Source: Gammaproteobacteria bacterium
GTDB taxonomy: Bacteria; Pseudomonadota; Gammaproteobacteria; Pseudomonadales; Pseudohongiellaceae
Assembly: GCA_016762995.1 (NCBI GenBank)
Contig: JAESUT010000003.1
Span: 1 to 6,218 of the forward strand
DNA length: 6,218 nt
Reading direction: 5' to 3'
This document shows positions 1 to 6,218 of this stretch, one piece after another. The notes below the pieces were generated by a model. It saw nothing but the letters and a program-made list of their open reading frames with translations. It had not been told where the DNA came from and made no database searches. Both the position numbers and the translations under genes were made by a program. Position 1 is the first letter of the stretch. The number at the start of each line of letters is the position of its first letter.

Positions 1-554
<554 letters not shown>

Positions 555-678
555 TTTTCTAATTAAGCACCTGTTCTTAATAACGCCTATCCCTTCGATA
601 CTTTTTTGGACTAAGCCAGTCACTTCCAAAGTTCCCGACTTCCGCTTAAGCGAACTACACTGTACTAACACGCACTGG

Positions 679-4394: not shown

Positions 4395-4707
<313 letters not shown>

Positions 4708-4708
4708 C

Positions 4709-4915
4709 TTGCTGGTTGTGCACATTCATGGGCCAAGTAAGGAGAACAGCACCAATAGAATAGGTTGGGAGTTATTTCTCAATGTAAACTTTACGATTAT
4801 AGAGTTAGTAGGAGGAGTGCTTAGCAATAGCACTTTAGGGGCGCTGGCTGGCAAAGTACGCCGTTGTAGGTTCAACCCGTCATCGCAACACTCTTTTCCA
4901 TCATCTCATTCTTAA
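4709..4915 (+). pseudogene. CDF (CzcD-like) cation transporter, N-terminal remnant
   Basis: Beginning two bases after the old pump stop, the frame reads HIHGPSKENSTNRIGWELFLNVNFTIIELVGGVLSNST. This matches the start of cation diffusion facilitators: a His-containing cytoplasmic tail, then the first transmembrane helix. Resemblance ends at about codon 42 (base 4834), just before the second helix, which would carry the metal-binding His/Asp residues. The remaining ~26 codons (LGALAGKVRRCRF onward) are unrelated. No clear ribosome binding site is seen before the TTG at 4709. The czcA-czcD order indicates that the ancestral metal-resistance cluster once continued here and was cut off. Confidence 0.65.
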
Positions 4916-5234: not shown

Positions 5235-5265
5235 TTGCATCTGTAGTGGGTACAGATGATATATT
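5235..5265 (+). promoter_or_regulatory. MerR-family-type promoter/operator (19-bp spacer with dyad)
   Basis: TTGCAT (5235-5240) and TATATT (5260-5265, preceded by TGA as in extended -10 boxes) are 19 bases apart. A perfect 8-bp dyad, CATCTGTA (5238-5245) and TACAGATG (5251-5258), fills the spacer around GTGGG. An overlong spacer with a dyad between -35 and -10 is the hallmark of promoters twisted into shape by MerR-family metal sensors. The CTGTAGTG...TACAG form resembles operators of the PbrR/CadR group as I recall them. The predicted start of transcription, near 5272, is about 45 bases before the selenoprotein ATG. No regulator gene is in the window. Confidence 0.6.
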
Positions 5266-5315: not shown

Positions 5316-6023
5316 ATGCGATCTCCGAAAACCAAATGGCTAATAGCCTTTTCCTTCTTAATGGCTCCACTGCTCGCGTCCTTGGCGTCACAGGCAGCTG
5401 CTGTTGAGAGTGAGTTATCCACGGTCACTCTCTTCGTCGAAGGTATGATGAAAAGCCGTGGCGGCGTCACTTGACTAAGCTGACCGAATAGCGTCGTAGC
5501 GGCTCTGTCAGAGCTCGCAGGAATAGATTCAGAAGATAATGTTGAAGTTTTTCTCGACAGGGATGCCTTCACCGTAAGTTATGATGCGTCACAAGTATCC
5601 TTGGAGGAAATGTATGAGGCGATTTCCGATCTGGGGTACAGTCCCGGTATTGAAGAAAAACAAGCGGATGATTCTTCGGATGAGAACCGTGGTGCCGTTC
5701 CTGATCTAGTCGTGTCAGCTCTCAATGAAGCGGCGGAAGACGGGAAATTGGTGCTTCTAGATTTTTATGCGCAGTGGTGTATCGCCTGCAAAGCATTGGA
5801 TGAAAGCGTGTTTAGCCAGCCCTCAGTAATTAGTGCCCTCGAGAACTATGTATTTCTCAAAATAGACACCGACTTGCATGAAGAAGTTGCCGCTTACTAT
5901 GATGTTGTGGGCATGCCTACACTCGTTATTTTGGGGGTGAGGGGTGATGAGATACATAGATCTGTCGGTATGCTTGACCCCGCAGAATTTAGCCTGCAGC
6001 TAGATGAGCTATTCGAGAAGTAA
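5316..6023 (+). CDS. Probable selenoprotein: exported HMA domain with U-x-x-U motif fused to a thioredoxin domain
   Basis: The frame gives 235 residues if two in-frame TGA codons (5472-5474, 5481-5483) are read as selenocysteine. The N-terminus (MRSPKTKWLIAFSFLMAPLL...ASQAAA) is a Sec-type signal peptide, probably cleaved near residue 29. Residues about 36-100 form an HMA domain: VTLFVEGM, then T-U-L-S-U-PNSVVAALSELAGI, then VEVFLDRDAFTVSYD and a final EEMYEAISDLGYSP. U53 and U56 fall exactly on the two metal-binding cysteines of the HMA CxxC. After an acidic linker (EEKQADDSSDEN) comes a thioredoxin domain with QWCIACKA (C155, C158) and a cis-proline in GMPTL (P201). Gene context: MerR-type promoter upstream, exported HMA gene 65 bases downstream. 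The ATG at 5316 is chosen for the signal peptide; its ribosome binding site is weak. TGA terminates neighbouring genes, so the code is standard. The alternative is a pseudogene with two nonsense mutations. Without recoding, only a thioredoxin fragment from about 5601 would be called. Confidence 0.8.
5499..5518 (+). promoter_or_regulatory. Candidate bacterial SECIS hairpin
   Basis: GCUCU (5502-5506) and AGAGC (5510-5514) pair around the three-base loop GUC. GCG (5499-5501) pairs with CGC (5516-5518) below a single unpaired U at 5515. The loop G lies 23 bases after the second UGA and 32 after the first, both inside the spacing range I recall for bacterial SECIS elements. As in E. coli fdhF, the stem has a lone bulged U and the loop starts with G followed by U, though here the bulge is on the 3' side. 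The hairpin is inside the coding sequence for the HMA helix (AALSELAG). Confidence 0.6.
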
Positions 6024-6088: not shown

Positions 6089-6218
6089 ATGAAATTTATT
6101 CCCGCGTTGGTATTTCTGCTGTTCGTTAGTGTCTCGAGCGCCGATGGTCAAGAATCTGCACCAGTCTATGCTGTAGGTGTAGATGGACTGGCCTGTCCAT
6201 TCTGTTCCTATGGTGTTG
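6089..6218 (+). CDS. Exported heavy-metal-associated (HMA, MerP-like) protein, N-terminal part (3' end outside window)
   Basis: The first 43 codons are visible. The ATG at 6089 follows AGAGAGAUCGAA, a moderate ribosome binding site. MKFIPALVFLLFVSVSSADG is a short signal peptide, with cleavage likely after SSA. The mature part begins the first HMA strand, VYAVGVDGLACPFCSYGV, with the metal-binding cysteines at residues 36 and 39. HMA domains carry soft metals such as Hg(II), Cu(I), Zn(II) or Cd(II) between two cysteines and pass them to partner proteins (family knowledge). The gene starts 65 bases after the selenoprotein stop, with no terminator seen between, so the two are probably co-transcribed from the promoter at 5235. 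Unlike its neighbour it uses ordinary TGT cysteine codons. What follows, and whether another domain is attached, cannot be seen. Confidence 0.8.
   Translation, partial: MKFIPALVFLLFVSVSSADGQESAPVYAVGVDGLACPFCSYGV

What the first reader, a model, noticed from the sequence alone, without database searches (positions are those of the whole stretch)
5316..6023. Unannotated selenoprotein: HMA domain with both CxxC cysteines replaced by TGA-encoded selenocysteine, fused to thioredoxin
Seen: one 235-codon frame with a signal peptide, an HMA fold and a thioredoxin domain, interrupted only by two TGA codons. They sit three codons apart, exactly where HMA domains carry T-C-x-x-C (here T-U-L-S-U-P-N). 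The sequence continues in the same frame with recognisable HMA sequence. Known: Sec often replaces catalytic or metal-binding Cys, and TGA is one base from both Cys codons. Inference: a U-x-x-U metal site would bind soft metals, especially mercury, very tightly, and the attached thioredoxin CxxC could reduce or reload it. Gene callers would truncate this to a thioredoxin fragment starting at about 5601. I cannot tell from here whether the family has been described.
Basis: partly seen in the sequence, partly recalled or inferred. Interest (0 to 1): 0.95.

Follow-up and report, generated by a model that had tools for sequence, protein, structure and literature searches.

The report
Twin-selenocysteine mercury-linked HMA–thioredoxin protein
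A bacterial gene that databases list only in cut or misread form has two in-frame UGA codons exactly where a metal-binding protein normally carries its two metal-gripping cysteines; both are predicted to be read as selenocysteine, the gene follows a predicted mercury-regulator-type promoter, and the protein would likely grip mercury outside the cytoplasm while its attached thioredoxin half would recharge it.

Summary
Window 5316-6023 (+) is one 235-codon frame with two TGA codons (residues 53, 56) aligned with the CxxC ligands of HMA domains, followed by a DsbD-gamma-like thioredoxin domain. All 23 intact homologous loci found (window included) keep both TGAs, never TAA, TAG or Cys; 27 of 27 database proteins spanning the site read Trp-x-x-Trp, a gene-calling artefact. 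The gene's strongest synonymous constraint lies on a hairpin 23 nt after the second UGA. The host draft has selB, tRNA-Sec and selD; selA was not found there, but a ~94%-identical relative has it, as do 12 of 14 genomes searched. New: a mercury-type regulon. A MerR-family gene lies nearby in 18 of 23 loci; 19 of 22 have a predicted MerR-type promoter before the selenoprotein gene; MerA, MerC, MerT/P or GDCCVxC genes lie near some. Best reading: periplasmic mercury-binding double selenoprotein with a built-in reductase. Metal, export and function are inferred. UxxU HMA selenoproteins are known as short proteins; this fusion was in none of the inventories searched.

The parts
5235..5265 (+). Predicted MerR-type promoter: -35-like TTGCAT (5235-5240), 19-bp spacer holding the operator dyad CTGTAGTGGGTACAG (5241-5255), -10-like TATATT (5260-5265)
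   Evidence: 2 mismatches to CTGTAGTNACTACAG, 75 bp before the ATG, 0.007 matches expected per 250 bp; same arrangement in 19 of 22 loci (loose -10 criterion)
5316..6023 (+). Double-selenocysteine HMA-thioredoxin fusion gene, 235 codons plus TAA
   Evidence: 23 intact loci with the window
5316..5402 (+). Probable N-terminal signal peptide (about residues 1-29)
   Evidence: by inspection; hydrophobic N-termini; pN/pS 0.53
5418..5651 (+). HMA domain (about residues 35-112) with a seven-residue stretch MKSRGGV between GM and TU
   Evidence: PF00403 residues 50-108, 31.6 bits; model order E35-42 H56-65 E76-79 E84-89 H96-105 E109-111
5472..5474 (+). TGA codon 1, predicted Sec53
   Evidence: TGA in 23 of 23 intact loci
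5481..5483 (+). TGA codon 2, predicted Sec56
   Evidence: TGA in 23 of 23 intact loci
5499..5518 (+). SECIS-like hairpin GCGGCUCU-GUC-AGAGC-U-CGC, loop 23 nt after UGA2 (32 nt after UGA1 by arithmetic)
   Evidence: 5-bp upper stem formed in 100% of cells over 21 distinct sequences, one pair with a double change; peak of synonymous constraint, windows centred on residues 62-67; fits published bSECIS limits in 23 of 23, as do 83 of 154 control positions
5706..6020 (+). Thioredoxin domain, DsbD-gamma-like, active site WCIAC (Cys155, Cys158)
   Evidence: PF00085 50.5 bits; DsbD C-terminal domain is the best thioredoxin-type match in the PDB by sequence (4ip1) and the best by fold (1vrs_D, E 1.4e-9)
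6089..6218 (+). Start of a second exported HMA-like gene with an ordinary Cys motif (GLACPFC), cut by the contig end
   Evidence: similar genes next downstream in L044 and about 2.4 kb downstream in L059; the two fragments scanned gave no family hit

Best explanation
Window 5316-6023 encodes a likely periplasmic double selenoprotein in which two in-frame UGA codons, predicted to be read as selenocysteine, stand in place of the metal-binding CxxC of an HMA domain fused to a DsbD-gamma-like thioredoxin domain, and it likely captures mercury(II) under predicted MerR control. Shown here: the frame, the two UGAs and their strict conservation, the fused domains, the constrained hairpin after the UGAs, Sec-decoding genes in the hosts, a MerR-type promoter sequence and neighbouring merR and mer genes. 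Inferred: a soft metal such as Hg(II) activates the promoter through MerR; Sec-tRNA and SelB, guided by one hairpin within reach of both UGAs, insert two selenocysteines; the exported protein binds the metal between two selenolates; and the thioredoxin CxxC, fed by a DsbD-type membrane reductase, re-opens the diselenide that would otherwise form outside the cytoplasm, or takes over the metal for hand-on to MerC or MerT.
For: Sec decoding: 23 of 23 intact loci TGA/TGA; of the 103 database proteins found besides my query, 27 span the site and all 27 read W/W (two apparent C/C rows, P0017 and P0019, are thioredoxin-to-HMA cross-alignments of proteins that start after UGA2); pN/pS 0.16 before the UGAs; synonymous excess up to 0.51 in windows centred on residues 62-67 against a median of 0.056; hairpin; own genome selB 396 bits, tRNA-Sec 68.9 bits, selD 297 bits; selA in 12 and selB over cut-off in 13 of the 14 genomes searched, out of 19 known to hold the gene. 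Not code 4: 40 of 123 neighbouring ORFs of 200+ aa with a readable stop end in TGA, and the L067 homologue itself ends in TGA. Mercury link: MerR-family gene in 18 of 23 loci; TIGR02051 MerR is the best model for all six regulators scanned; operator dyad before the selenoprotein gene in 20 of 22 loci, full -35/19-bp/-10 layout in 19 of 22, dyad beside merR in 14 of 18 loci; MerA over cut-off in L049 and L050, MerP over cut-off in L049, MerC over cut-off in L068, GDCCVxC over cut-off in L048, L060, L062. Fold.
Against: selA was not found in the host draft, nor was the 8.6-kb selA region of the near relative; G391 lacks selA and a selB over cut-off. The five selenogene-adjacent MerR proteins scanned reach 126-133 bits, below the MerR equivalog cut-off of 150.85, and their last two Cys are 8 apart where the over-cut-off regulator in L049 has 9, so the sensed metal is not settled. 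MerC in L049 and L059 and MerT in L049 and L050 are best hits under their cut-offs. MerA was confirmed in only 2 of 23 loci. RNAalifold preferred another, invariant pairing that involves UGA2; only one of five stem pairs changes on both sides, which 109 of 500 shuffles reach; 83 of 154 control positions also satisfy the bSECIS limits; single-sequence folding is unremarkable. So the SECIS rests on conservation. L052 and L055 lack both the operator and a merR neighbour.
Confidence: 0.6

Rival explanations
1. The gene is a true double selenoprotein, but the metal is not mercury: it serves copper, silver, cadmium or another soft metal, alongside the RND-type efflux pump whose end lies at window 3-554.
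For: An RND efflux gene lies upstream in the window (Pfam) and, by similarity clustering, in L044 and L048, and downstream in L049 and L058; among HMA-type NCBIfam models a CopZ model scores best (46.6 bits, under its cut-off of 91); the adjacent MerR proteins fall under the Hg-MerR cut-off, with CadR and CueR models at 110-125 bits.
Against: TIGR02051 MerR is still the best model for each of the six regulators scanned; they keep the upstream Cys, 35 residues before the next, which by recalled knowledge marks divalent-metal sensors and not Cu(I) sensors; recurring neighbours are MerC, MerA and GDCCVxC genes.
Confidence: 0.2
2. The UxxU-HMA domain is a redox partner, not a metal carrier: the thioredoxin domain and the diselenide form an exported relay that repairs oxidised or metal-poisoned proteins.
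For: DsbD-gamma-like domain; most described selenoproteins are thought to be redox proteins (PMC13188914, section 7 parts 1 and 2).
Against: The two Sec codons lie on the metal-ligand positions of the HMA fold and the promoter is of MerR type, which points to metal handling.
Confidence: 0.15
3. Nonsense mutations or assembly errors: a pseudogene whose Cys codons turned to TGA, with only the thioredoxin part made from an internal start.
For: The window is rich in insertion elements and TGA is one base from both Cys codons.
Against: 23 of 23 intact loci from many assemblies share both TGAs; codons before them are under purifying selection; synonymous constraint peaks around and after the UGAs.
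Confidence: 0.02
4. TGA is read as tryptophan (genetic code 4), giving W-x-x-W.
For: 27 of 27 database proteins that span the site were translated that way.
Against: TGA ends 40 of 123 neighbouring ORFs of 200+ aa; hosts carry Sec-decoding genes; W-x-x-W makes no sense at an HMA ligand site.
Confidence: 0.01

Closest known systems
UxxU metal-binding (seleno)protein NF041115 ('putative mercuric reductase', two Sec, PMC13188914 Table 1)
   Same: HMA-type metal-binding protein in which both motif residues are Sec (UxxU)
   Different: Model of 74 positions; this protein scores 32.5 bits against a cut-off of 95, has a seven-residue stretch before the first Sec that canonical HMA domains lack, and is fused to a thioredoxin domain
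MerP/MerT-related selenoproteins (GOS MerP, 2 sequences, PMC2398784; PF02411 selenoprotein, PMC13188914; NF045683 MerT/CopZ fusion-like selenoprotein)
   Same: Mercury-linked HMA or MerT proteins that use Sec
   Different: MerP model 28.7 bits against a cut-off of 92.55, MerT_CopZ_Se 12.8 against 375; no thioredoxin domain in the listings seen
DsbD gamma domain (C-terminal thioredoxin domain of DsbD)
   Same: Nearest solved relative of the thioredoxin part by sequence and by fold, WCxxC active site
   Different: No DsbD membrane domain here; joined instead to an HMA domain
MerR regulon of mer operons
   Same: MerR-type promoter layout (19-bp spacer with dyad), merR-family gene close by, mer genes near some loci
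   Different: The member is a double selenoprotein; in 15 of 18 loci it is convergent with merR and has its own operator copy

Membership tests
Bacterial selenoprotein | In-frame UGA aligned with Cys of homologous domains, conserved across species | tested here: met
Bacterial selenoprotein | SECIS hairpin after the UGA (limits from PMC13188914 Fig 2 legend) | tested here: inconclusive
   GU[C/U] loop 23 nt after UGA2 in 23 of 23 and both UGAs pass in 23 of 23 (lenient scan over sub-windows), with strong synonymous constraint; but 83 of 154 control positions also pass and RNAalifold prefers another pairing
Bacterial selenoprotein | selA, selB, selC, selD in the host | tested here: inconclusive
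   selB, tRNA-Sec, selD found; selA not found in the draft but in the ~94%-identical relative G390
Bacterial selenoprotein | Selenium in the product | not testable with these tools
   needs 75Se labelling or mass spectrometry
HMA domain (PF00403) | Over the curated cut-off | tested here: met
   31.6 bits against 24.8, with Cys written for the two TGA
HMA domain (PF00403) | CxxC metal ligands | tested here: not met
   TGA-x-x-TGA; no C/C form among 27 spanning database proteins
NF041115 UxxU metal-binding selenoprotein | Over the curated cut-off (95 bits) | tested here: not met
   32.5 bits
MerP (TIGR02052) | Over the curated cut-off (92.55 bits) | tested here: not met
   28.7 bits
MerR regulon member | Promoter with long spacer and operator dyad, merR-family gene close by | tested here: met
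   19 of 22 loci; merR family in 18 of 23 loci
MerR regulon member | Induction by Hg(II) | not testable with these tools
   needs a reporter test

The most novel reading that the evidence does not exclude
A mercury-inducible, obligately selenium-based metal trap: an exported HMA domain whose two ligands are always selenocysteine and never cysteine, decoded from one shared SECIS, with its own fused reductase to keep the diselenide open, and possibly able to break the carbon-mercury bond of methylmercury with its paired selenolates.
Probability: 0.35. Interest if true: 0.92.

Novelty: new variant of a known kind. Interest (0 to 1): 0.8.

Why it matters
It ties selenium use to mercury defence through gene control and not only through chemistry: a MerR-type switch, of the kind that runs mer genes, appears to drive a double selenoprotein. 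It offers a natural candidate Se-Hg-Se trap to test against the thiol-based MerP, a case of two Sec three residues apart under one candidate SECIS, and a family that searches built on Cys/Sec pairs could miss, because no Cys form of the fusion was found. Databases now hold it as a truncated thioredoxin or as a false Trp-x-x-Trp protein.

Tried and rejected
Pseudogene or sequencing error. Genetic code 4 (L067's own stop is TGA). A Cys form was sought in 5.8 billion proteins by sequence and by profile (which scored only the 7997 candidates sharing most words): none among the 27 proteins that span the site. My first count was by a motif that a differently built Cys form could have escaped, so one search repeated it by alignment; it flagged P0017 and P0019 as C/C, which searches show to be cross-alignments of their thioredoxin site (both start after UGA2). 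A search with the HMA part alone gave 8 candidates and no hit, so stand-alone relatives were not reached. Plasmids (10 records) and phage records (4) gave only partial matches, none over 60% of the query, mostly annotated DsbD. Rarity: high-scoring two-TGA relatives in 2 of 390 genomes of the order sample; a strict DNA motif in 1 of 369 genomes of the class sample, the host itself (G279 is not in that list). The first promoter scan was too strict and missed the window's own site (6 of 22 loci against 2.7 expected before the selenoprotein gene; 5 of 19 against 3.2 at merR); two perfect merR-side dyads in it (L056, L068) gave the pattern used, so that pattern is not independent of these loci. 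RNAalifold's structure differs from the hairpin I favour; both are nearly invariant, so covariation cannot choose. Rows dropped before counts: L053 (near-identical to L052, same genome) and from the non-redundant set; L063 (frameshifted) from the TGA, constraint and promoter counts, but kept. Genome searches for selA and selB covered 14 of the 19 genomes known to hold the gene. One paper search returned nothing.

Full report
What is there. Window 5316-6023 (+) is a single 235-codon frame closed by TAA with two internal TGA codons at residues 53 and 56. With Cys written at the two sites, Pfam finds an HMA domain (31.6 bits, cut-off 24.8) and a thioredoxin domain (50.5 bits, cut-off 23.5). A family profile aligns the two sites with the CxxC ligands in the HMA repeats of Copper-transporting ATPase 2 (7xuk). 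The AlphaFold model (31-sequence alignment, mean pLDDT 81.2, pTM 0.63) shows the HMA strand-helix order, the two residues in the loop before the first helix of that domain, and a thioredoxin fold; Foldseek's nine best matches are DsbD C-terminal (gamma) domain entries (1vrs_D, E 1.4e-9). A seven-residue stretch, MKSRGGV, separates the HMA 'GM' from 'TU'; GMMKS is invariant in the 14 sequences and at least 90% conserved in the 31.

Is it chance. tblastn-confirmed scanning of a genome collection gave 20 further loci, and the host itself and genome G279 gave three more. Of these 24 loci 23 are intact, and all 23 have TGA at both sites and no other in-frame stop; L063 is shifted by one base just before the first TGA. 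Of 103 database proteins found besides my query, 27 span the site and 27 of 27 have Trp at both positions, the mark of gene calling with code 4; 28 others begin exactly at residue 60, after the second TGA. None that spans it has Cys. Codons 30-52, before the TGAs, have pN/pS 0.16, against 0.24 for 57-112, 0.28 for the thioredoxin part, 0.53 for the signal region and 0.76 for the linker, over nine pairs. Code 4 is excluded, since 40 of 123 neighbouring ORFs of 200+ aa with a readable stop end in TGA.

Decoding. The host assembly (3.05 Mb, 234 contigs, 92% complete) has selB (396 bits), tRNA-Sec (68.9 bits against a gathering score of 47) and selD (297 bits). selA was not found. The close relative G390, about 94% identical in DNA over the stretches compared, has selA, and the 8.6 kb around it there is absent from the host draft as a whole; that fits a gap but does not prove one. 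Of 14 genomes searched, out of 19 known to hold the gene, 12 have selA and 13 have selB over the cut-off; G391 lacks both. A hairpin with loop GU[C/U] lies 23 nt after the second UGA in all 23 sequences tested, and both UGAs meet the published limits in 23 of 23 (limits from PMC13188914, passages read). Its upper five pairs are formed in 100% of cells over 21 distinct sequences. Codon constraint peaks over it: in seven-codon windows centred on residues 62-67, same-residue pairs share the codon 0.71-0.77 of the time against 0.22-0.27 expected, an excess of up to 0.51 against a gene median of 0.056; a second peak is centred on residues 52-58 (22 sequences). Cautions: 83 of 154 control positions in the same genes also meet the limits; only one pair changes on both sides, a figure reached by 109 of 500 shuffles, although 3 of 500 reach the paired fraction and the covariation score; RNAalifold prefers an invariant pairing of CUGAC, which holds UGA2, with GUCAG; single-sequence folding is unremarkable. 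Both UGAs lie within 16-37 nt of one loop (23 and 32), so one element could serve both; that is inference.

Regulation and neighbours. A MerR-family gene lies in 18 of 23 loci: in 15 directly beyond the 3' end on the opposite strand, in L044 further downstream, and in L067 and L068 just upstream on the same strand. The window's contig ends 195 bp after the gene, so its own merR cannot be seen. Of six regulators scanned, all have TIGR02051 (mercury MerR) as best model; the five selenogene-adjacent ones (L045, L050, L058, L059, L067) reach 126-133 bits, under the 150.85 cut-off, and the second one in L049 reaches 160.7. The nearest solved chain to the L045 regulator is 4ua1, with the three Cys aligned. 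Other neighbours: MerA over cut-off in L049 and L050; MerP over cut-off in L049; MerC over cut-off in L068, best hit under cut-off in L049 and L059, and by similarity in L044 and L047; MerT best hit under cut-off in L049 and L050; GDCCVxC protein over cut-off in L048, L060 and L062. The dyad CTGTAGTNACTACAG, taken from two merR-side sites, occurs with at most 3 mismatches within 250 bp before the selenoprotein gene in 20 of 22 loci and beside merR in 14 of 18, with 0.007 expected per 250 bp (49 matches in all against 7.0 expected). In 19 of 22 the dyad sits in a 19-bp spacer between a TTG-type -35 and a -10-like hexamer (loose criterion), the layout of MerR promoters as recalled; the window has it at 5235-5265. 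L050's site is a poor match at -205, and L052 and L055 have neither site nor merR neighbour.

Mechanism. Committed reading: Hg(II) or a like soft metal switches on the gene through MerR; SelB inserts two Sec; the exported protein binds the metal between two selenolates; the DsbD-gamma-like domain, by analogy with DsbD, takes electrons from a membrane reductase and re-opens the diselenide or takes on the metal. Only sequence, conservation and the predicted control elements are shown; binding, electron flow and export are inferred. The methylmercury idea in the novel case rests on recalled selenolate chemistry and no call.

What is known. PMC13188914 (May 2026; section 7 parts 1 and 2 with all of Table 1 read; part 3 not read; other passages by term) speaks of 119 families, among them a UxxU metal-binding protein (NF041115) and a MerT-type selenoprotein, but its table has no HMA-thioredoxin fusion. 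PMC2398784 (passages by term; not all places shown) lists MerP (2 sequences, 0 Cys homologues) and names other fusions, not this one in what I saw. PMC9312934 and PMC12013277 were seen by passages only. Paper searches showed no description in their listings; subscription papers, preprints and supplements were not seen, so a prior description cannot be ruled out. Of the 25 NCBIfam 20.0 models listed for the protein, none is over its cut-off and none covers both domains. Verdict: a real double-selenoprotein family absent from the inventories I searched, a new variant of the UxxU HMA kind, with a predicted regulon link to mercury that is the main advance.

Noticed in passing
window 265-570 and 4419-4724 (L044 4709-5014): The 3' end of the RND pump gene occurs twice in the window, on either side of about 3.8 kb with an IS91-type transposase, an IS200-like (Y1) transposase, a Mutator-type transposase and a HigB/HTH toxin-antitoxin-like pair; in the near relative L044 this stretch aligns once.
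   Followed up: partly
L049 7683-8156 (+): A MerP-like HMA frame near the fusion gene has TGA at the first ligand position (T-U-V-G-C), a probable UxxC selenoprotein, followed by a second merR and MerT, MerP and MerA genes.
   Followed up: partly
window/L066 (G000), L044/L051, L050/L056, L052/L053, L067/L068 (G279): Five genomes carry two copies of the UxxU fusion gene, the host included; the L052/L053 pair is almost identical.
   Followed up: no
L047 and L049: Loci titled Blastopirellula and Alphaproteobacteria carry copies 64% and 91% identical to the window's, while most named loci are titled Gammaproteobacteria: mis-binned contigs or transfer.
   Followed up: no
G000 C172 (L086): selD lies in a 759-codon open frame, much longer than the 311-position family; it may be the NADH dehydrogenase-SelD fusion mentioned in PMC2398784 (fusion not tested).
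   Followed up: no
L047, L048, L056, L059, L060, L062, L067 (cluster CL2): An about 180-residue membrane-type protein with a TPGCEMRA-like motif recurs within about 2.5 kb of the fusion gene; the one member scanned (L060) matches no NCBIfam model.
   Followed up: partly
window 6089-6218, L044 6885-9222, L059 8284-10538: An HMA-like CPFC protein, a roughly 300-residue exported-looking protein and a repeat protein follow each other in L044 and L059 and may form a recurring block.
   Followed up: no
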